Source: Methanomicrobia archaeon (GTDB lineage Archaea > Halobacteriota > Syntropharchaeia > Alkanophagales > Methanospirareceae). Taken from it: DNA of 60,664 bases. Position numbers and translations under genes: made by a program. Positions 24,401-38,191 of the stretch are shown here, piece after piece. The notes under the pieces are model-generated. The model was given only the letters and a program-made list of their open reading frames with translations, did not search any database and had not been told where the DNA came from. Location: positions 1-60,664 of the forward strand of contig JAFGHB010000025.1 of assembly GCA_016930255.1 (NCBI GenBank), in the 5' to 3' direction. Position 1 is the stretch's first letter; each line of letters begins with the position of its first letter.

Positions 24401-27262
24401 TCACTCCTCCCTCGTTCGCCTTCTTACGATGTTCAGTACCACGATTGCCGAAAGCACGCCGACCAGCGTTATCAGTCCCACGGGCGTTAGCGCAGGCAGT
24501 TGTGCTGGCGCTGATGGCCCTTCTCCCCGCCGACACTCGTCCAGTGGATTCGCGTCTGAATTATTTGCGGTACCATAGATCTCGTAAGCGCCTGATCCAT
24601 CCCAATCATTCCAGAAGTTGCTCGTAAAGATGTTGTTTGTCCCGTTATCCACCGCCTGATAGGGCGTGTTGCCAATGAAGCAGTTTTCGTAGATCTCGTT
24701 ATCCGCGGATCCTGAGTTAAGATCCACGCCAGAATCAGCCGAGCCGGTGTTGTTCACGATCATGTTCCTCCTGATCGTGGCATTTTCAACGTCCTCGAAG
24801 TCAACCCCGTCGCCGCAGTCGCTTATAGTGTTCTCCTCGATCAGGGGATCGCCCAGATTCACCGTCGCACCGCTAGCGTTGTAGAGATCCATGTAGAGAT
24901 AGACGCCCGCCCAGCCGCATGCATCGATCGTGTTCCCCTGTATCAGTGCCCGGCCGATGGTCTGCGTGGAGTTGCCAGAGGCGTCGAAGTAATAATAGAT
25001 TTTGACCCCGTCTTCGGATACATTACTGATCTCATTCCTGAGGATGTCCAGCATACCCATCGTTAACCTGCTCTCGTCATAACTGTAGACGTTATCGGCA
25101 ACATCAATACCATCGCCGTCGGTGAGGTTATCTATCACGTTATCGGCAATGAGCAGGTCTCCGAACTCCAGCGTGGAATTGTAAATGAGGTCATAGCCAA
25201 TCTCGTCATAGTAGATACGGATGGCATAATAGTCTACGTCATAGAATCGGTTATTGGTTATGATAACATCGTCGAAGGTGATGATGACATTGCTGTAGTA
25301 AGAGTCACCCAAGTCGATCTCATAGGGTGTTTCATAGTATTCGAGGTATATGCCATATTCGCAACTGAAGGTGTTGTCATCGATGAAGAGTTCCCCGAAA
25401 TAGAAGGTGGCGTTGTTATCCATAGAGTAAGGAGTCTCATAGACATAGAGATATATCCCATCACCGTCTACATCAAAAGTGTTTCCGGTTACGGTGATAT
25501 CGCCGATTATGGTTGCGCTACTGTCGTAGTTTTCATGGCATACGACCTCGTAGAAGAGGTATATGCCGTCGCCGCCGCACTCGAAGGTGTTGTCATCGAT
25601 GAAGAAGCCGCCAAAGTCGATTAAGGTGTCGTCATAAGCGCCATGGGGATTTCCATAGTTGTAGAGGTAAATCCCGTTTAGGCTGACGTTGAAGGTATTG
25701 CCCGTGATTACGTAACTGGGCAGCTCCGCAGAGGCGTTGCCGTGCATATCGTAGCCGACCCCTGAATCGTAGTAATAAAGATATACGCCGTCATCGTCGC
25801 CCGATATGTTGTTGTTATCCCGGACATAAATGTCGCCCATGCTGAGATTCGCGTTCTCCTCCATCTCGTAGGCAACATGGTTGTAGTAAACGTAGATTGC
25901 GTCGAAATAGGCATTGATTGCGTTCTCTTCAATGTGCACCTCGTCGGTCGTCACCTCAGAATTGCCATCCATGTCATCACCGAAATCATTATACTCTAAC
26001 TCGATACCATAGCCCTCCCTCGAAACGATCGTGTTGTTGTTAATAAAGACGTCGCCCAGGGCTATCGACGCGTTGTTGTATAGGTACTCCGCCAGGTAGT
26101 AAACATATAGGCCATAGCCGCTGACGTTTATCTCGTTACCCTCGACATAAAGATTACCTACGGTTAACGAAGCTTCATCTTCGAAAGTTTCAAAGTAGGC
26201 GTAGGCGTCAATGTAAATGGCATCAGTGGTCACGGACGTTATCGTGTTACCGTTGATCACCAGGTCGCCACAGGTTCCCGTGGTCGTGCCATACCACTCC
26301 GTGGCTCCGTAGTAGTCAATATACATAGCATAGCTCGTCTGGTTCTCGAAGGTGTTGTCATTCACGACGACGTCGCCAGCGGTCACGGTGGTATTGGTAA
26401 GGGTGAAGAAACCACCATAAAAGTCAATGCCCTTTTCGCCACCGTAGAACTTGTTCCCGGAGATATTCACGTCGCCCATTGAGATGCTTCCGCCAGTGAG
26501 ATCCGTCACCCAGATGTCTTCTATATCAACGCCATCGGTCGTTACCATATTGAAGACGTTATCCAGGATATCAAAGTCGCCGATGGTGACGGTGTAGCCA
26601 GTTACGGTGGCGTCGTAATCCAGTCTAACACTAAAATAAAACCCGTTGTCGCTGATGTTAAAGGTATTGCCCCTGATGCATATGTCGTCAATCGTGTAAT
26701 TGTCGTTTGCAGAGTCTCCAAAGCCCTTGTCAATACCAAAGTGAACCCCGTCGCTCAGATTGGTGAAGGTGTTGTCTAAAATAGTGAAGCCAACGAAGTC
26801 ATCGGAAAAGATTCCATTGGTGCCGTTGGTAATCGTAAAGCCCTCGATGGTTATGTTGCTTGCGTTGATGTCCAGTATCTCAGTTGCGCCTCCGCCGTCG
26901 ATAATGGTGGTCGCCGCACCTGCGCCGATGAGGCTGATGCTGTCGTTATTAAAAGTGATGGGAAAGGTCTCGCCGTTAGTCGTGTTGTCATAGAGTCCCG
27001 CAGACACATTGATGATATTGGGGTCCGCGAGGCTGGCGCCCGCAGGGACGGTAGCCACCGCGTGCGTTATGGTCTTCCAGGGAGTGGCTGGATTCTGCGC
27101 CGCCACAGCATTGCGGGTATCGTCCCCCGTGCCATCATCAACATAGTACGTCGTTCCCGGGCTGGCCGCTACCGTTCCTGCCAGTACTAACGTCAGAAAG
27201 AGAGTAATCACGCCAATCGCCGTTACTTCGAGTAAAATCGCTTTCTTCTTTTCAGCTTTCAT
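24401..27262 (-). CDS. Large secreted right-handed beta-helix surface protein with C-terminal anchor
   Basis: 953 residues. An N-terminal signal peptide (hydrophobic run 'VTAIGVITLFLTLVLAGTV', cleavage near 'AAS') is followed by 'YYVDDGTGDDTRNAV' and 'PWKTITHAVATVP', the standard opening of pectate-lyase/NosD-like beta-helix proteins. Then come more than a dozen coils of about 45-50 residues, each with a 'DNTF' or 'GNTF/ENAI' turn, a 'DGIYLYYY' strand and an 'Asn/Thr-Ile-Gly-Asp' return. The C-terminus has 'LTPVGLITLVGVLS', a hydrophobic helix and 'RRRTREE', an anchor or sorting signal. The tyrosine- and aspartate-rich coils suggest calcium or carbohydrate binding. Likely an S-layer or adhesion protein; enzymatic activity is not evident. 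Confidence 0.85.
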   Translation of the reverse strand: MKAEKKKAILLEVTAIGVITLFLTLVLAGTVAASPGTTYYVDDGTGDDTRNAVAAQNPATPWKTITHAVATVPAGASLADPNIINVSAGLYDNTTNGETFPITFNNDSISLIGAGAATTIIDGGGATEILDINASNITIEGFTITNGTNGIFSDDFVGFTILDNTFTNLSDGVHFGIDKGFGDSANDNYTIDDICIRGNTFNISDNGFYFSVRLDYDATVTGYTVTIGDFDILDNVFNMVTTDGVDIEDIWVTDLTGGSISMGDVNISGNKFYGGEKGIDFYGGFFTLTNTTVTAGDVVVNDNTFENQTSYAMYIDYYGATEWYGTTTGTCGDLVINGNTITSVTTDAIYIDAYAYFETFEDEASLTVGNLYVEGNEINVSGYGLYVYYLAEYLYNNASIALGDVFINNNTIVSREGYGIELEYNDFGDDMDGNSEVTTDEVHIEENAINAYFDAIYVYYNHVAYEMEENANLSMGDIYVRDNNNISGDDDGVYLYYYDSGVGYDMHGNASAELPSYVITGNTFNVSLNGIYLYNYGNPHGAYDDTLIDFGGFFIDDNTFECGGDGIYLFYEVVCHENYDSSATIIGDITVTGNTFDVDGDGIYLYVYETPYSMDNNATFYFGELFIDDNTFSCEYGIYLEYYETPYEIDLGDSYYSNVIITFDDVIITNNRFYDVDYYAIRIYYDEIGYDLIYNSTLEFGDLLIADNVIDNLTDGDGIDVADNVYSYDESRLTMGMLDILRNEISNVSEDGVKIYYYFDASGNSTQTIGRALIQGNTIDACGWAGVYLYMDLYNASGATVNLGDPLIEENTISDCGDGVDFEDVENATIRRNMIVNNTGSADSGVDLNSGSADNEIYENCFIGNTPYQAVDNGTNNIFTSNFWNDWDGSGAYEIYGTANNSDANPLDECRRGEGPSAPAQLPALTPVGLITLVGVLSAIVVLNIVRRRTREE

Positions 27263-27448: not shown

Positions 27449-28372
27449 CTACACGGTTACATTATCGCGCAAAAAGGTCGCTAATCGTTTGCTGTCTCTA
27501 TCCTTTTTTAGCATAATATCTGTTTTGAGCACGTCCACCCCTTCGTCTGCAGGACACGCGTCACCCTTATCGATGACCAGCACGTCAAGGAAATCCCGGT
27601 AGCACGAGTACACACCATAGGGGGAGACGTCAAACCCTTTTGCACGCATGAATTTGCCCGCAGGGCCGCTCACTGCTTCCGTACCCACGATCGGTGAAAT
27701 CGCGATCACGATCTTCCACCTTAACAGATCTCGTATCCCCTTCAGGCTGAGTATCGGCCCGACGCTCGTAATCGGATTGCTCGGCCCGATGAGCACCAGC
27801 GCTTCTGATTCTTTCTCGAGCACCTCGACAACCGCCTCTGACGGGTTCACCACATCTATGCCCTCGAACTGGACATCGAGCACGTCCGGCTCGCCTTTGC
27901 GGACCACCCAGAACTCCTGGAAATGGAGCTCCCCCTCAGGAGTCCGGATCGTCGTGCGTACCGCTGCGGGCTCATCAGTCATCGGCAGTATCTTTATGCG
28001 ATCGGGTATGCCGAAATTCCGTGCGAGCACTGCCGTCGCCTCGGTCAGGCTCTTCCCCTGCCGCAGCAGCTCTGATCTTGCGATGTGCGTTGCGCGGTCC
28101 TTATCGCCGATCATCAACCGTTCCGGATTCTGAAACCGCTCCAGCGCCTCGTGCGTGGTAAACGTATCGTCCTTGACGCCCCACCAGGTCTTCTTATCCA
28201 TGACGCCCCCCAGGGTGTATAGGACCGAATCGATATCCGGGCAGAGTAAATTGCCGGAAATCCAGATGTCTTCCGCCGTATTCACGATGATGTTCAGCTC
28301 TTCGTCCTTGAATACCTTCTCCAGTCCCACCAGCAGCTTCGGCGTGCCCGTACCGCCTGAAAGGATAATCAT
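27449..28372 (-). CDS. cofD: 2-phospho-L-lactate transferase CofD (coenzyme F420 biosynthesis)
   Basis: 307 residues. 'MIILSGGTGTPKLLVGL' begins the family N-terminus; 'EDIWISGNLLCPDIDSVLY', 'GDKDRATHIARSELL', 'LIGPSNPITSVGPIL' and 'VIAISPIVGTEAVSGPAGKFM' are conserved CofD blocks. It transfers the phospholactyl-type group to Fo, giving F420-0, so the organism makes the deazaflavin used by the FrhB-like protein at 32298. ATG 28372 is selected because the family N-terminus starts there; the open frame continues 28 codons upstream without similarity. Confidence 0.93.
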   Translation of the reverse strand: MIILSGGTGTPKLLVGLEKVFKDEELNIIVNTAEDIWISGNLLCPDIDSVLYTLGGVMDKKTWWGVKDDTFTTHEALERFQNPERLMIGDKDRATHIARSELLRQGKSLTEATAVLARNFGIPDRIKILPMTDEPAAVRTTIRTPEGELHFQEFWVVRKGEPDVLDVQFEGIDVVNPSEAVVEVLEKESEALVLIGPSNPITSVGPILSLKGIRDLLRWKIVIAISPIVGTEAVSGPAGKFMRAKGFDVSPYGVYSCYRDFLDVLVIDKGDACPADEGVDVLKTDIMLKKDRDSKRLATFLRDNVTV

Positions 28373-28537
28373 ACTCTGATAAAAAAGCGAGGTGAAAAGA
28401 TAAAGCCTTTGAGAATTTCGAAAAACACCCGAAAACGTGCAAAGGATGGCAGGCACAAACAGAACGGGAAGTAACTCAAAATCCTCTAATCTAAAGATTT
28501 TATATAAATGACCTGAGCGAGAACGGAAGAAACTACG

Positions 28538-29068: not shown

Positions 29069-29312
29069 CCTTACTACCTCTTCATTATCTTCAGTCCGGT
29101 GGTACTTAAATAAGATGCCGGGAAGGAGGGTTGTTCTTTTTAGTTACCACGGCTTCGTATTTTCGACAACCGCCCCTGTACCTCGGCTGCCGCTGCTGAT
29201 AGTTTCACTCCGAAACGACTTAAAGCCTGGAGCCCTTTTGGCACGGTATGCCATAGATAAAAGGCTTAAATATCTCGAAAAGAAAGGGAGAACTGAGATA
29301 ACAAAGGTAAAA

Positions 29313-31709
29313 ATGGATGAGATAAAGAAGGGTGATTTGTTCTCGATTGCCGGCCTGGAAAACGTGAAGATAAGCATTGGTGAGATAGTAGAGGAAGAAG
29401 GAGGAAAGGACTGGGAGCCGATGGGTCCCCATCCAATGCCACGCATAGCAACGCTTCGAGACTGGGATTTCAAGCTATTGAACCGGTATAAGCCGTTTTA
29501 TGCGCCGTTGTGCGACATGTGCTGCCTGTGCACGTACGGCAAATGCGACCTCACGGGCAACAAGAAGGGCGCGTGCGGGATACGAATGGACGCACAGCAC
29601 GGCCGAATTGTGCTTCTTGCGTGTTTGGTGGGTTGCAGTGCTCATTGTGGCCATGGACGACATCTTTTGCACGATATGATAAAGAAATTCGGCCGGGACG
29701 TTCCCATCGATTTCGGGCCCGAGGTGGATGTAGAAGCGCCTCTTACGAGATTGATCTGCGGCATAAAGCCGAGGACAATAGGCGATTTTGAGCAGGTATT
29801 TGATTACATTGAAGAGCAATTAGTTCAATTGGCCGACGCACTTCACACGGGCCAGGAGGGTTCATACATGGACTTCGAATCAAAAGCGCTCCACATGGGT
29901 ATGCTCGATTCACTGAGCAAAGAGGCCGCTGATATCATTCAGATCGCCTGTTATGGCATGCCAACGAGCCATGAAGGCGGCGGTCCGAATGTTCCGCTCG
30001 TCGACGTGGGGATAGGAACGATCGATACTGATAAACCTGTTGTGCTTGTTATAGGTCATAATGTGCCTCCGGCTGCGGATATAGGTGACTACCTGACGGA
30101 CAACGATCTCGAGGACAACGTGGAACTCGCAGGTATTTGCTGTACTTCTATTGACACTACGCGCGTGTATAAGAAAGCGAAGATAGCCTCTGCGCTTGGC
30201 AGGCAATTGCGTGTGATACGAGCGGGAATCGCAGATGTCGTCGTGATAGATGAGCAATGCATTCGTGCGGACATCGTGGAGCTTTGTCAACGAACTCACT
30301 CGCCGGTGATCGCGACAAATGACAAGGCAATGCACGGTTTGGTGGACAGAACTGATGATGATCCTGATGCAATCGTGGCCGATTTGGTGAACGAGCGCGT
30401 GCCCGGTGTAATCATACTCGATCCCGAGCAGGTGGGCGAAGTAGCAGTGAAGACCGCGCTACAGATGGATAAGAAGCGGAGGAAGCTGCGTTTTATTCTT
30501 AGCGATGATGAATTCAAGCAGTATGTAAATGAGTGTACCCAATGTGGCAATTGCACGCTTGCATGTCCGAACGGGATGAGGATTGGAGAAGCGATGGCAA
30601 GTGCCGCGTCAGGGGATATAAAGCCTCTTGCTGATATGTTCGACCTCTGTGTCGGCTGTGGCCGGTGCGAGCAGGTTTGTAAGAAGCAGATGCCGATTGT
30701 CGATGTGATCACCAAGGCGGCATATCCGCAGCTCCGAGAGGAGAAAGGGCGGATGCGAATAGGGCGAGGCCCGATCTGGGACAGTGAGATACGGGAGGTC
30801 GGTGCTCCTATTGTTCTCGGGACCATTCCGGGCGTGATTGCGCCGATCGGCTGTGGCAATTATCCGCAAGGGACGAAGGACGCGTGGCTCATCGTCAAGG
30901 AGTTCGCGGAACGGAATTACATCGTTACGCTGACGGGCTGCATGGCGATCGATGCCGCGCTGTGGAAAGACGAGGACGGGAAAACACTGTACGAGCAGCA
31001 TCACGGCAGATTCGACGGCGGTGGCGTGCTCAACATCGGCTCGTGCGTCTCCAATGCGCATATCCACGATGCAGCAATAAAGATAGCGAGTATCTTCGCA
31101 GGGAGAAAGCTGCGCGGAAATTACGAAGAGATCGCAGATTACATTCTGAGTCGAGTCGGCGCCTGCGGTGTTGCGTGGGGCGCGATGTCACAGAAGGCGG
31201 CCTCGATCGCGACGGGCTTTAATAGACTTGGTATTCCCGCGGTCGTTGGCCCGCATAGTACGAAGTACCGACGAGCGTTCCTCGGTCGCGCAGACGTGCA
31301 AGACGATTGGAAGATAATAGACGCCAGTGATGGCTCTGAGCTTTATTTCGAGCCGGGCCCGCAACATTTACTCGTAGCCTGTGAGACGGTGGAGGAAGCT
31401 TTGCCGATGATCGCGAAACTGTGCTTCCGGCCCTCGGACACAGATCGTGGACGGTCCATAAAACTGACGCATTACATTGATCTCAGCCAGAAATATCTCA
31501 ATACGTATCCAACGGATTGGCACCTCTTCGTCCGGAGTGCCACGGACCTGCCCATTGCGAAGAAGACCGAATTGCTGAAGATACTCGAGGACAAGCATGA
31601 GTGGAAGATCGACTGGAAGACGAAACGGATATTAGAAGGGCCTATTCGTGGATACGACCCCTCATTCAACCCGACGAACTTGAAACGGCTGGTACGGGAG
31701 AGGAAATAA
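29313..31709 (+). CDS. cdhA: CODH/ACS alpha subunit CdhA (carbon monoxide dehydrogenase)
   Basis: 798 residues, normal CdhA length. 'CDMCCLCTYGKCDLTGNKKG' near the N-terminus binds the B/D-type clusters; 'CTQCGNCTLACPNG' and 'CVGCGRCEQVCKKQ' are two extra [4Fe-4S] motifs typical of the archaeal alpha subunit; conserved His/Cys residues in 'GCSAHCGHGRHLLHDM', 'AGICCTSIDTTR', 'LTGCMAIDAA', 'GSCVSNAH' and 'GVAWGAMSQKA' form the Ni-Fe-S C-cluster region. It interconverts CO and CO2 within acetyl-CoA decarbonylase/synthase. ATG 29313 ('MDEIKKGDLFSIAGLENV') fits the family start; the frame from 29115 adds 66 unrelated residues. CdhB follows after 22 bases. Confidence 0.95.
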   Translation: MDEIKKGDLFSIAGLENVKISIGEIVEEEGGKDWEPMGPHPMPRIATLRDWDFKLLNRYKPFYAPLCDMCCLCTYGKCDLTGNKKGACGIRMDAQHGRIVLLACLVGCSAHCGHGRHLLHDMIKKFGRDVPIDFGPEVDVEAPLTRLICGIKPRTIGDFEQVFDYIEEQLVQLADALHTGQEGSYMDFESKALHMGMLDSLSKEAADIIQIACYGMPTSHEGGGPNVPLVDVGIGTIDTDKPVVLVIGHNVPPAADIGDYLTDNDLEDNVELAGICCTSIDTTRVYKKAKIASALGRQLRVIRAGIADVVVIDEQCIRADIVELCQRTHSPVIATNDKAMHGLVDRTDDDPDAIVADLVNERVPGVIILDPEQVGEVAVKTALQMDKKRRKLRFILSDDEFKQYVNECTQCGNCTLACPNGMRIGEAMASAASGDIKPLADMFDLCVGCGRCEQVCKKQMPIVDVITKAAYPQLREEKGRMRIGRGPIWDSEIREVGAPIVLGTIPGVIAPIGCGNYPQGTKDAWLIVKEFAERNYIVTLTGCMAIDAALWKDEDGKTLYEQHHGRFDGGGVLNIGSCVSNAHIHDAAIKIASIFAGRKLRGNYEEIADYILSRVGACGVAWGAMSQKAASIATGFNRLGIPAVVGPHSTKYRRAFLGRADVQDDWKIIDASDGSELYFEPGPQHLLVACETVEEALPMIAKLCFRPSDTDRGRSIKLTHYIDLSQKYLNTYPTDWHLFVRSATDLPIAKKTELLKILEDKHEWKIDWKTKRILEGPIRGYDPSFNPTNLKRLVRERK

Positions 31710-31731
31710 GTAAGTAAGGGGGAAAGTAAAG

Positions 31732-32274
31732 ATGGGAGCGGAAATACCTTTTGACGTGGCGAATATCCCCGGTCCTGAGACAGGCGAAGTGGTCGCACCG
31801 AAAGTAATAGGGAGTTACATCTCAAGCGCGAAGCGGCCGTTGCTCGTTGTGGGCTCTGAAATTTTGCGTGATGAGTTCTTTGTGGAACTCGCGATTGAGC
31901 TGGGTAAGAAGGGGATCCCGATAGCCGCAACGGGCCACAGCATAAAGGGCTTTGTAGAAAAGGGCTACTGCGAGAACGTGCAGTATTACAACTTGCACGA
32001 CCTCACGAACTGTTTACGAGACCCGAACTGGGCGGGCCTGGACGGTAAGGGCAATTACGATTTCGTGATCTTCTTCGGCATCACGTACTATTACGCGTCG
32101 CAGATGCTGTCCTGCATAAAGAACTTTGCAACCGATCCCCTGGTTCGTGCGGTTTCGATTGATCGTTATTACCATCCAAACGCGCGAATGGGCTTTGCAA
32201 ACATTACGCCGCGGCAGGAGGAGGAGTATAAGGCGATGCTGAATCGCGTAGTGGGGAGCATAAAGCGGAGGTAA
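31732..32274 (+). CDS. cdhB: CODH/ACS epsilon subunit CdhB
   Basis: 180 residues. 'RPLLVVGSEILRDEFFVELA' and 'GIPIAATGHSIKGFVEKGY' match the DHS-like Rossmann fold of the epsilon subunit, which forms the alpha2-epsilon2 CODH module with CdhA and has been proposed to help electron transfer through a flavin. The C-terminal 'DRYYHPNARMGFANI' segment is also conserved. It lies between cdhA and the FrhB-like gene, with 22- and 23-base spacers; all three look like one operon. Confidence 0.93.
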   Translation: MGAEIPFDVANIPGPETGEVVAPKVIGSYISSAKRPLLVVGSEILRDEFFVELAIELGKKGIPIAATGHSIKGFVEKGYCENVQYYNLHDLTNCLRDPNWAGLDGKGNYDFVIFFGITYYYASQMLSCIKNFATDPLVRAVSIDRYYHPNARMGFANITPRQEEEYKAMLNRVVGSIKRR

Positions 32275-32297
32275 GAGGGCAGAAACGGAACGGAACC

Positions 32298-33419
32298 ATG
32301 GTAAAAGAAAAAGGTAATCTAACGGATTTAGAGGCGGAAGTGATATATAACGGGCTCTGCTGCTACTGCGGGACGTGCGGCGCGTTTTGCAAGGAGTACA
32401 TAACGTACGAGGATGGACTGCCGAAGACAAAGAAGAAGTGCTATGAGATCTGCGGCGCGTGTTACGATTTCTGTCCACGGACGTTCTTCGCTCCTTTCAA
32501 GGTAGACCGAGCGGTATTTGGCGAGGTGAGAAAGGACGGTTTGTTAGGCTATTACCAAGGAGATATAATCACCGCACGTGCCACCGATAAGGCCGTTATG
32601 GATAAAGCACAGGATGGCGGAGTTATATCCGCATTGCTTCTCTTCCTGATCGAGCAGGGCGAGATCGATGCAGCAGTTGTCACAAAGACTTCTGAGGAGA
32701 AGGCGTGGCAACCGGAACCGTGCATTGCAACAACGAAAGAGGACATATTAGCTGCGGCTGGCTCGAAATACACGCAATGCCCGGCGGTACTAGGAGTGGG
32801 TGACGCGTTCGAGCAGGGCTACCAGAATATCGCCCTTGTCGGATTGCCATGCCACATAGAGGGCATGAGAAAGGTTCAGTTGTCAAAAGGCTTTGACGTC
32901 GGCGCTGACCGCGTGAAACTCCTTATCGGGCTCTTCTGCACGGAAACGTTTGATTCCACGATGCTCATCACGGTTTTGGAGACGTTAGGCACGAGTTTCG
33001 AGGACGTCAAGAAATTCAATATACGGAAGGGGAGCTTCATCGTTTATACAAAGTCTGGCGAAACGCTGAAGATGCCGGTTCGAAAAATGAGGGCGTATGC
33101 ACGAGAAGCGTGCAATTACTGCTACGACTTTGCATCAGAGTTCGCTGACGTTTCCGTGGGATCAATAGGCTCCGATGACGGCTGGTCAACGGTGATCGCG
33201 CGAAGCGACGCGGGTAAGGACTTGCTGAAGCGCGCGGAGGCCGCGGGATTAATAGAAACGAAGAAGCTCTCGAAAGAGGGGATAGCGACCGTAAAGAAGC
33301 TCGCATCGTTCAAGAAGCGGGAGAACCTGAAGTGGATTTACGAGAAGACCGAGCCCTTGAGCTTCCTGAATATGCAGGTCGAGCCAGAGCTGCTTGAACG
33401 GTTCTTGTGCGGGGATTGA
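32298..33419 (+). CDS. FrhB/FpoF-like F420-dependent oxidoreductase subunit linked to CODH
   Basis: 373 residues of the coenzyme F420 hydrogenase/dehydrogenase beta family. An N-terminal cysteine pattern ('CCYCGTCGAFCKEYI', then 'CYEICGACYDFCPRTFF') binds [4Fe-4S] clusters; 'AQDGGVISALLLFLI', 'GLPCHIEGMRKVQL' and 'ACNYCYDFASEFADVSVGSIG' are the FAD/F420-domain blocks. Family members pass hydride between F420 and iron-sulphur clusters through FAD. Placed directly after cdhA-cdhB, it suggests that CO oxidation/CO2 reduction is coupled to F420 here; this is inference from gene order. Confidence 0.9.
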   Translation: MVKEKGNLTDLEAEVIYNGLCCYCGTCGAFCKEYITYEDGLPKTKKKCYEICGACYDFCPRTFFAPFKVDRAVFGEVRKDGLLGYYQGDIITARATDKAVMDKAQDGGVISALLLFLIEQGEIDAAVVTKTSEEKAWQPEPCIATTKEDILAAAGSKYTQCPAVLGVGDAFEQGYQNIALVGLPCHIEGMRKVQLSKGFDVGADRVKLLIGLFCTETFDSTMLITVLETLGTSFEDVKKFNIRKGSFIVYTKSGETLKMPVRKMRAYAREACNYCYDFASEFADVSVGSIGSDDGWSTVIARSDAGKDLLKRAEAAGLIETKKLSKEGIATVKKLASFKKRENLKWIYEKTEPLSFLNMQVEPELLERFLCGD

Positions 33420-36813: not shown

Positions 36814-36835
36814 CCCAAAAATTTCAGGAGTGAAA

Positions 36836-38191
36836 ATGGACATACGAGTACGGAAGCTATACGAGGCGTTGTTCGCGCTCGAAGAGCTGCGCGAGCTTTA
36901 TCGGCACGCGTTACCGTCTGGCCTTGACGAAGAGGAAGAAGCGCACTTTGCAGACGGTGTAGCTCGCGTCGAGCGTCTCGTTGAGGAATTGAAAGCGGGT
37001 AAGGGCAACCCCGTTAAACAGATTACCACAACGCTTGAACTGAGGACGAGAGAGGAAGAGTTCATCAATATCAATCCTATTCAGGCGGGAGGCAGATTAA
37101 CGCTTGAAGCACGGAAAGCGCTCATTGCCTACGGCGATGGCTATTCGGTCTGTGATCAGTGTTTAACGGGCAGGCTTGATCAGATCAGGAAACCGCCGGT
37201 CGATGAATTCCATGCGGAATTGGCGGCATTTGTGGGCATGGATGAAGCACGGGTGGTGCCGGGTGCGCGACGCGGCTTTCAGGCTGTTACGTCCTCGCTC
37301 ATTGAGAAAGGCGATGTCGTGATCGTCTCGGATTTAGCGCATTATACCGAATTCTTAGCGGTCGAGATCGCAGGCGGTATTGTCAAAGAGGTGCCGACGG
37401 GCTCGAACCACCTCGTGACCGGCGATGCCGTCGCGGAGACCGTAGAGCGGGTGAAGGAGGATACTGGAAAGCTGCCAAAGCTCATCATGATCGAATATGT
37501 CGATTACAGTTACGGTAACGTCCACGACGTTGCAGGCGTGGGAAAAGTTGCGAAGGAGTATGACATCCCGTTTCTCTGCAACGGTGCGTACGCCGTGGGC
37601 ATGATGCCGGTGAACGGTAAGGAGATGGGCGCGGATTTCGTGGTCGGCTCCGGGCACAAGGGCATGGCTGCGGTTGCACCCTCCGGCGTCCTCGCCACGA
37701 CAGAAGACTGGGCGTCCACGGTGTTCAGAAGCAGCCGCATCCGGGGCGATCTTACCGCCAGGAGCTTCGAGAACAAAGAGCCGGAGATGATGGGCTGTAC
37801 GCTGATGGGCGGCACGGTCGTCTCCATGATGGCTTCGTTCCCCGCTTTGAAAGAGCGTGTGCAGCACTGGGACGAGGAGGTAAAGAAATCAAATTATTTC
37901 ATCACCGAGTTCCTGCGCATTGCCGGCAACAGAATTATGAGCGAATATCCACGTCAGCATACGCTTTCGAGGATTGACACGCGCGAGAGCTTCGATCAGA
38001 TCGCGAAGACGCACAAGCGAAGAGGCTACTTCCTCAGCGACGAATTGAAGAAGAGGAAGATTGTGGGTGAATTTGCGGGCTCGACGCGCGTGTGGAAGCT
38101 CAACACCTACGGACTGAGCTGGGAGCGGATAAAGTACCTCAGCGAGGCGTTCATAGCAATCGCGGAGAAATACGAGTTGGCGGTACACTAG
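36836..38191 (+). CDS. pscS: O-phospho-L-seryl-tRNA:Cys-tRNA synthase (SepCysS)
   Basis: 451 residues. The PLP enzyme blocks 'INPIQAGGRLTLEARKALIA', 'GYSVCDQCLTGRLDQI' with its conserved cysteine, 'VPGARRGFQAVTSSLI', 'PFLCNGAYAVGMMPVNG' and 'VVGSGHKGMAAVAPSG' (PLP-binding Lys) identify SepCysS. It converts Sep-tRNA(Cys) made by SepRS into Cys-tRNA(Cys), the indirect cysteine route of methanogens and relatives. ATG 36836 lies 5 bases after AGGAG and is preferred over a GTG at 36830. A radical SAM gene follows after 59 bases. Confidence 0.95.
   Translation: MDIRVRKLYEALFALEELRELYRHALPSGLDEEEEAHFADGVARVERLVEELKAGKGNPVKQITTTLELRTREEEFININPIQAGGRLTLEARKALIAYGDGYSVCDQCLTGRLDQIRKPPVDEFHAELAAFVGMDEARVVPGARRGFQAVTSSLIEKGDVVIVSDLAHYTEFLAVEIAGGIVKEVPTGSNHLVTGDAVAETVERVKEDTGKLPKLIMIEYVDYSYGNVHDVAGVGKVAKEYDIPFLCNGAYAVGMMPVNGKEMGADFVVGSGHKGMAAVAPSGVLATTEDWASTVFRSSRIRGDLTARSFENKEPEMMGCTLMGGTVVSMMASFPALKERVQHWDEEVKKSNYFITEFLRIAGNRIMSEYPRQHTLSRIDTRESFDQIAKTHKRRGYFLSDELKKRKIVGEFAGSTRVWKLNTYGLSWERIKYLSEAFIAIAEKYELAVH

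What the first reader, a model, noticed from the sequence alone, without database searches (positions are those of the whole stretch)
29313..33419. cdhA-cdhB-frhB operon: F420-linked CODH module without the other ACS subunits
The alpha2-epsilon2 CODH module genes are followed, not by cdhC/D/E, but by an F420 dehydrogenase-type subunit with tight spacing. This suggests a CO:F420 oxidoreductase arrangement, in which electrons from CO oxidation go to F420 rather than only ferredoxin (or the reverse).
Basis: partly seen in the sequence, partly recalled or inferred. Interest (0 to 1): 0.6.

Follow-up and report, generated by a model that had tools for sequence, protein, structure and literature searches.

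The report
F420-linked CO dehydrogenase operon, ANME-1-family archaeon
Three adjacent genes encode an archaeal carbon monoxide dehydrogenase whose attached third subunit probably swaps electrons with the cofactor F420, a kind of complex already crystallised from an ethane-eating archaeon and already noticed in methane-eating relatives; what remains open is which way it runs in this group.

Summary
In detail: cdhA (29313-31709), cdhB (31732-32274) and an frhB-type gene (32298-33419) sit on one strand, 22 and 23 bases apart. The title is half right: cdhC, cdhD and cdhE are not adjacent, but all three are in the same genome (contig C76), and this is its only full CdhA. So the triad is the CODH module of the genome's acetyl-CoA synthase, not a separate CO oxidase. 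All three proteins find the chains of PDB 8RIU as best match, the F420-reducing CODH of Ca. Ethanoperedens, for which CO-dependent F420 reduction was measured (Lemaire 2024). Chadwick 2022 had already reported the ANME-1 cluster (FrhB7 with CODH alpha/epsilon) and proposed CO-to-F420 flow. Hence: mostly supported, already known. New here: FrhB7 lies beside cdhA in 22 of 29 genomes of the order that have it, but not in G60ANME1 from Guaymas; the published negative test on ANME-1 extract used a Guaymas culture, so may not cover this arrangement. In eight genomes another CODH cassette (HdrC-FrhB fusion plus two HdrA) is found instead, in five behind the same upstream neighbours. Direction (CO oxidation or F420H2-driven CO2 reduction) is undecided.

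The parts
29313..31709 (+). cdhA: CODH alpha subunit (798 aa); only CdhA over the cut-off in the genome
   Evidence: TIGR00314 1260 bits; best PDB match 8RIU_A 1178 bits, then Methanosarcina-type ACDS alpha 911 bits; 24 cysteines shared with the Ethanoperedens alpha; only one match over the cut-off in G000
31732..32274 (+). cdhB: CODH epsilon subunit (180 aa)
   Evidence: TIGR00315 172 bits; best PDB match 8RIU_C 216.8 bits
32298..33419 (+). frhB7 / zeta-type F420 reductase subunit (373 aa): N-terminal 2x[4Fe-4S] ferredoxin domain, F420/FAD domain with a third cluster, C-terminal extension
   Evidence: PF04422 and PF04432; best PDB match 8RIU_B 449.9 bits, next 214.6; cysteines 21, 22, 24, 27, 31, 48, 55, 59, 185, 214, 272, 275 present in every one of 35 FrhB7/zeta rows that has the column; domain identities to zeta
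27449..28456 (-). cofD (F420 biosynthesis), divergent neighbour; upstream flank shared by loci of both CODH cassettes
   Evidence: TIGR01819 381.6 bits; flank comparison

Best explanation
The three genes encode an F420-linked CO dehydrogenase module (alpha2 epsilon2 zeta2) that serves as the CODH of this archaeon's acetyl-CoA synthase, the rest of which is encoded on another contig. [quoted passage not shown] Shown here: gene content, homology of all three subunits to the three chains of 8RIU, retained cysteines, conserved linkage, presence of the remaining ACS genes. Shown elsewhere, for the ethanotroph only: the assembly and CO-dependent F420 reduction. Inferred: that this protein assembles likewise. 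Direction is my weakest step. I lean to reversible, mainly assimilatory use (F420H2 + CO2 to CO, handed straight to the ACS; about 0.5), against CO oxidation during breakdown of acetyl-CoA (about 0.35). The confidence given is for the F420-linked module, not for the direction.
For: 8RIU chains A, B and C are the top solved matches of CdhA, FrhB and CdhB. The Ethanoperedens locus (G387; zeta 369 of 370 residues identical to 8RIU_B) has alpha, then zeta, then cdhC, D and E (L156). Window FrhB7 against zeta by domain: N 48/82, middle 146/266, C-terminal 5/21 identical; the pyruvate-synthase-linked FrhB paralogue of the same genome has N 31/82 and nothing aligned to the C-terminal extension. Linkage in 22 of 29 genomes. 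FrhB7 occurs in 27 of 35 genomes with the window's kind of CdhA and 0 of 8 with the divergent kind (Fisher p = 9e-5, not corrected for kinship), and the divergent kind carries its own FrhB-type gene directly downstream. Energetics from published potentials: CO to F420 -34.7 kJ/mol; whole acetyl-CoA synthesis with F420H2 about -35 kJ/mol (inputs), so neither direction is excluded.
Against: Extracts of ANME-1 and ANME-2 enrichments showed no detectable CO-dependent F420 reduction, and the authors call the coupling specific to ethanotrophs (PMC11493965). FrhB7 is unlinked to cdhA in 4 genomes and present without a close CdhA in 2 (G009, G011), so it may have another partner there. Eight genomes keep the window's kind of CdhA without a detected FrhB7 (several are cut contigs, but G007 and G046 show other genes after cdhB). 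C-terminal identity to zeta is low (5 of 21). No interface residues could be tested. CO2 reduction by F420H2 is uphill unless CO is kept at roughly 1e-6 to 1e-4 of CO2.
Confidence: 0.8

Rival explanations
1. The same complex works only in the oxidative direction, sending electrons from CO (from acetyl-CoA breakdown or carbon stores) to F420.
For: Proposed for FrhB7 in PMC9012536 and measured for the ethanotroph enzyme. Standard CO to F420 is -34.7 kJ/mol. No McrA was found in the window's genome, so methanotrophy is not shown for this very genome.
Against: It is the only CdhA over the cut-off, and ACDS is the source of acetyl-CoA for biosynthesis (passage of PMC9012536), so an oxidation-only enzyme would leave no CODH for assimilation. 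The net synthesis with F420H2 is still exergonic. McrA is present in 5 of 8 genomes of the genus, so its absence here may be a gap in the assembly.
Confidence: 0.35
2. FrhB7 is a free ferredoxin:F420 oxidoreductase (FpoF-like), merely co-transcribed with the CODH that makes reduced ferredoxin.
For: It aligns over its length, N-terminal domain included, with FpoF models (residues 13-357); FrhB7 is unlinked in several genomes and present without close CdhA in G009 and G011. A negative CO:F420 test in ANME-1 extract.
Against: FpoF models score 175-179 bits against cut-offs of 444-475; 8RIU_B is by far the best solved match; the subfamily sits beside cdhA in three separate places of the tree.
Confidence: 0.13
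3. A stand-alone CO:F420 oxidoreductase separate from acetyl-CoA metabolism.
For: cdhCDE are not adjacent.
Against: cdhC, D and E are in the same genome and there is one CdhA only; CdhA is the ACDS type, not CooS (TIGR01702 58.8 bits against a cut-off of 478).
Confidence: 0.05

Closest known systems
F420-reducing CODH component of ACDS, alpha2 epsilon2 zeta2, Ca. Ethanoperedens thermophilum (PDB 8RIU; PMC11493965)
   Same: All three subunits homologous, best solved match of each; zeta gene downstream of alpha; retained cysteines; C-terminal extension of like length
   Different: There zeta is followed by cdhC, D and E in one region (L156); here cdhCDE lie on another contig. Zeta is about 54% identical. 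Ethanotroph versus ANME-1-family host. Activity untested here.
FrhB7 clusters of ANME-1 (Chadwick et al. 2022, PMC9012536, Fig 16)
   Same: FrhB paralogue in a cluster with CODH alpha and epsilon in ANME-1; same proposed electron flow
   Different: No essential difference seen.
FrhB of F420-reducing hydrogenase, FwdI (8RJA), Fsr N-terminal domain
   Same: F420/FAD domain with a [4Fe-4S] cluster
   Different: Different partners; the window protein scores up to 215, 199 and 160 bits against Frh, FwdI and Fsr-type chains, versus 450 for 8RIU_B

Membership tests
F420-reducing CODH (alpha2 epsilon2 zeta2, 8RIU type) | alpha, epsilon and zeta homologues encoded together | tested here: met
F420-reducing CODH (alpha2 epsilon2 zeta2, 8RIU type) | zeta N-terminal ferredoxin domain with cysteines for two [4Fe-4S] clusters | tested here: met
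   Cys 21, 22, 24, 27, 31, 48, 55, 59 shared with zeta; that the domain holds two clusters is from PMC11493965
F420-reducing CODH (alpha2 epsilon2 zeta2, 8RIU type) | F420/FAD domain with third cluster | tested here: met
   PF04422, PF04432; Cys 185, 214, 272, 275 conserved; which of them bind the cluster was not read from coordinates
F420-reducing CODH (alpha2 epsilon2 zeta2, 8RIU type) | C-terminal extension used for the zeta dimer | tested here: inconclusive
   All 21 positions aligned but only 5 identical; absent from the Por-linked paralogue
F420-reducing CODH (alpha2 epsilon2 zeta2, 8RIU type) | CODH metal-ligand cysteines in alpha | tested here: met
   24 cysteines shared with the Ethanoperedens alpha; ligand identity not read from coordinates
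F420-reducing CODH (alpha2 epsilon2 zeta2, 8RIU type) | Genes in the same region as the other ACDS subunits | tested here: not met
   cdhCDE on contig C76. The source gives it as a reason for calling zeta an ACDS subunit, not as a property of the complex.
F420-reducing CODH (alpha2 epsilon2 zeta2, 8RIU type) | Physical complex and CO-dependent F420 reduction | not testable with these tools
   needs protein; negative in an ANME-1 enrichment extract (PMC11493965)
FrhB7 of ANME-1 | FrhB paralogue clustered with CODH alpha and epsilon in ANME-1 | tested here: met
   definition
FrhB of F420-reducing hydrogenase (TIGR03289) | Score over the family cut-off | tested here: not met
   251 bits against 331.5
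Monofunctional CooS CODH (TIGR01702) | Score over the family cut-off | tested here: not met
   58.8 bits against 478

The most novel reading that the evidence does not exclude
In the ANME-1 family the electron partner of the acetyl-CoA-synthase CODH is a swappable module. In most genomes it is a zeta-type F420 reductase that lets F420H2 drive CO2 reduction for carbon assimilation. In eight genomes the cassette is a different one, cdhA - HdrC/FrhB fusion - HdrA - HdrA/MvhD fusion - cdhB, which would be a flavin-based bifurcating or confurcating F420-linked CODH, a kind I found described in none of the papers searched.
Probability: 0.3. Interest if true: 0.75.

Novelty: already known. Interest (0 to 1): 0.4.

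Why it matters
Two papers disagree in effect: one places FrhB7 beside CODH in ANME-1 (PMC9012536), the other says F420-coupled CODH is specific to ethanotrophs and found no activity in an ANME-1 extract (PMC11493965). The gene maps here offer a reason: linkage varies inside the family, and G60ANME1, a Guaymas genome by its published origin (recalled), is one of those in which FrhB7 and cdhA lie apart. If linked ANME-1 have the activity, F420 rather than ferredoxin is the currency at the CO/CO2 step in a much larger group of methane-oxidising archaea.

Tried and rejected
Rejected: a CooS-type or stand-alone CO oxidase; loss of the ACS; FrhB7 as a hydrogenase beta subunit. McrA as evidence on the organism's way of life: none found in the window's genome, but 5 of 8 genomes of the genus and 34 of 53 of the order have it, and presence does not go with FrhB7 (16 of 29 against 18 of 24, p = 0.16), so I draw nothing from it. 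RnfC: 8 matches, none over the cut-off. Conserved linkage cannot be read as one gain: the tree needs at least 3 changes and does not tell gain from loss. Not tried: structure prediction and fold search (sequence matches to 8RIU made them unneeded), promoter scans (the tool covers only sigma-70 types).

Papers: PMC9012536 sections 15 and 31 and passages; PMC11493965 abstract, Results parts 1 and 2 of 3, Discussion, section 12 and passages; PMC11543930, PMC13079737 and PMC12054007 passages; all others in search listings only. Figures and supplements were not seen. 'FrhB7' occurs in one paper of the library. For a CODH-HdrA-FrhB cassette I searched and looked for Cdh, carbon monoxide and acetyl-CoA in PMC12054007 (none); supplementary figures of PMC9012536 may show it.
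Full report
What is there. On the + strand, cdhA (29313-31709, 798 aa), cdhB (31732-32274, 180 aa) and an frhB-type gene (32298-33419, 373 aa) follow each other with 22 and 23 bases between them. NCBIfam and Pfam name them without doubt: CdhA TIGR00314 1260 bits, CdhB TIGR00315 172 bits, FrhB_FdhB N and C domains 87 and 153 bits. The frame of cdhA opens at 29115, but homologues align from the ATG at 29313.

Genome context. The window is contig C25 of a 2.23 Mb, 87-contig assembly, 95.5% complete. Close relatives of the FrhB gene are in records named Methanophagales (ANME-1) and related Methanosarcinales or Methanomicrobia MAGs, so the host belongs to the ANME-1 family. The genome has one CdhA over the cut-off. 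cdhC, cdhD and cdhE lie on contig C76, with GGPP-synthase-like, UbiX-like and kinase-like genes between cdhC and cdhD (named by eye; CdhC also; CdhD and CdhE by eye, and as homologues of cdhD and cdhE in the operons of G002 and G387). So the locus lacks the other ACS genes but the genome does not. The genome holds nine FrhB-family matches; their neighbours include PorA/PorB and an Fqo-type NuoBCD/NuoI set, so F420-linked modules are many here.

What it is. In the PDB the best matches of FrhB, CdhA and CdhB are chains B (449.9 bits), A (1178 bits) and C (216.8 bits) of one entry, 8RIU: the F420-reducing CODH component of Ca. Ethanoperedens thermophilum. That enzyme was purified, crystallised at 1.89 A and shown to reduce F420 with CO; ferredoxin was reduced eight times more slowly (PMC11493965). 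Genome G387 encodes that zeta (369 of 370 residues identical to 8RIU_B), so zeta could be used as a reference row. Window FrhB7 keeps the cysteines of zeta's N-terminal domain and four more in the F420 domain, as do the other rows. By zeta's domain borders it is identical at 48/82, 146/266 and 5/21 positions; the Por-linked paralogue of the same genome reaches 31/82 and 110/258 and has nothing aligned to the C-terminal extension. Window CdhA and the Ethanoperedens alpha share 24 cysteines.

How conserved. In 53 genomes of the order, 29 have FrhB7 (55% identity or more). It adjoins cdhA-cdhB in 22: 20 as A-B-F, 2 as F-A-B (G032, G033). In three of the 20 the gap before frhB7 is wider (130, 434 and 440 nt; G040, G026, G024). 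G043 is cut by contig ends; in G001, G002, G008 and G012 cdhA is on another contig; G009 and G011 have no close CdhA. In a tree of 35 FrhB7/zeta proteins, linked and unlinked rows need at least 3 changes; zeta of Ethanoperedens groups with unlinked copies of two genomes of the window's class (100/100 support). Thus this subfamily has come to lie beside CODH genes in at least three parts of the tree, or has left them repeatedly; either way CODH is its recurring partner.

A second cassette. Eight genomes (G003, G004, G006, G022, G023, G025, G044, G052; five genera) have a CdhA only 56-59% identical to the window's (G025: 63% over a fragment), followed by an FrhB-type gene with an HdrC-like N-terminal part, two HdrA-type genes, the second with an MvhD-like part, and a distant cdhB (the cassette is complete on the contig in six of the eight). 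FrhB7 is in 27 of 35 genomes with the window's kind of CdhA and in 0 of 8 of these (Fisher p = 9e-5, uncorrected for kinship; the 35 include fragments). In 22 loci compared, upstream neighbours are shared across the two kinds: cofD and its neighbours in G000 and G016 against G003, G004 and G006; an ABC-transporter-like set in G024, G040, G042, G048 and G049 against G044 and G052. The cassette therefore seems to have been replaced in place, and both versions carry an FrhB-type gene. Among 392 genomes of the phylum the HdrC/FrhB gene was found at E <= 1e-85 only in these eight.

How it probably works. By homology with 8RIU: C-cluster, CdhA clusters, two clusters of the FrhB7 N-domain, third cluster, FAD, F420. 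Direction is open. CO to F420 is -34.7 kJ/mol under standard conditions. From the published +66.1 kJ/mol for acetyl-CoA cleavage with ferredoxin at -500 mV (table passage), synthesis with F420H2 at -340 mV comes to about -35 kJ/mol. So F420H2 can pay for acetyl-CoA synthesis as a whole if CO passes directly to the ACS at 1e-6 to 1e-4 of the CO2 level; the argument in PMC9012536 that F420H2 cannot donate looks at the CO/CO2 or pyruvate step alone. As the only CdhA must serve assimilation in an ANME, I lean to reversible, mainly assimilatory use, without proof.

What is known. Chadwick et al. [quoted passage not shown] Lemaire et al. 2024 gave structure and activity for the ethanotroph, found no CO:F420 activity in ANME-1 and ANME-2 extracts, and held the coupling to be specific to ethanotrophs. 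Their culture AOM50 is from the Guaymas Basin (that it is the ANME-1 one follows from AOM20 being described as ANME-2), and their operon survey used contigs of assembly PQXC among five ANME-1 records. PQXC is G60ANME1, where FrhB7 and cdhA lie on different contigs (L010 and G008 share contig length and coordinates). That the AOM50 ANME-1 is of this kind is my inference. The negative test therefore may not speak for genomes with the linked triad, like this one. Equally, FrhB7 in the linked genomes may be inactive with CO; I found no test of it.

Verdict. The open and testable points are direction, the conflict between the two papers, and the second cassette.

Noticed in passing
L105:6515-14328, L162, L163, L164, L165, L106 (cut: L166, L167): A divergent CODH cassette, cdhA - HdrC/FrhB fusion - HdrA - HdrA/MvhD - cdhB, without an HdrB gene seen, in place of cdhA-cdhB-frhB7.
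   Followed up: partly
L104:1658-5725: CdhA of G013 holds an intein (TIGR01445 match); its neighbouring cdhB is of the divergent kind, as in G046 (L099), suggesting mixed cassettes.
   Followed up: no
L107, L126, L127, L128: A third, about 35% identical CdhA-like protein; beside a second CdhC in L107 and L128; the two aligned copies (L126, L127) lack several conserved cysteines.
   Followed up: no
window genome (all contigs searched): No McrA match at 95.5% completeness, while 5 of 8 genomes of the genus have one. Assembly gap or loss not settled.
   Followed up: partly
L119:4355-7618 (G000:C35): Pyruvate synthase PorA-PorB followed directly by an FrhB paralogue, matching the FrhB6 clusters of PMC9012536.
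   Followed up: no
24401-27262: 953 aa open frame on the - strand with many repeated GNTF-like units and a C-terminal hydrophobic stretch, by eye a beta-helix surface protein.
   Followed up: no
36830-38191: Sep-tRNA:Cys-tRNA synthase (SepCysS) gene, 428 bits to TIGR02539.
   Followed up: no
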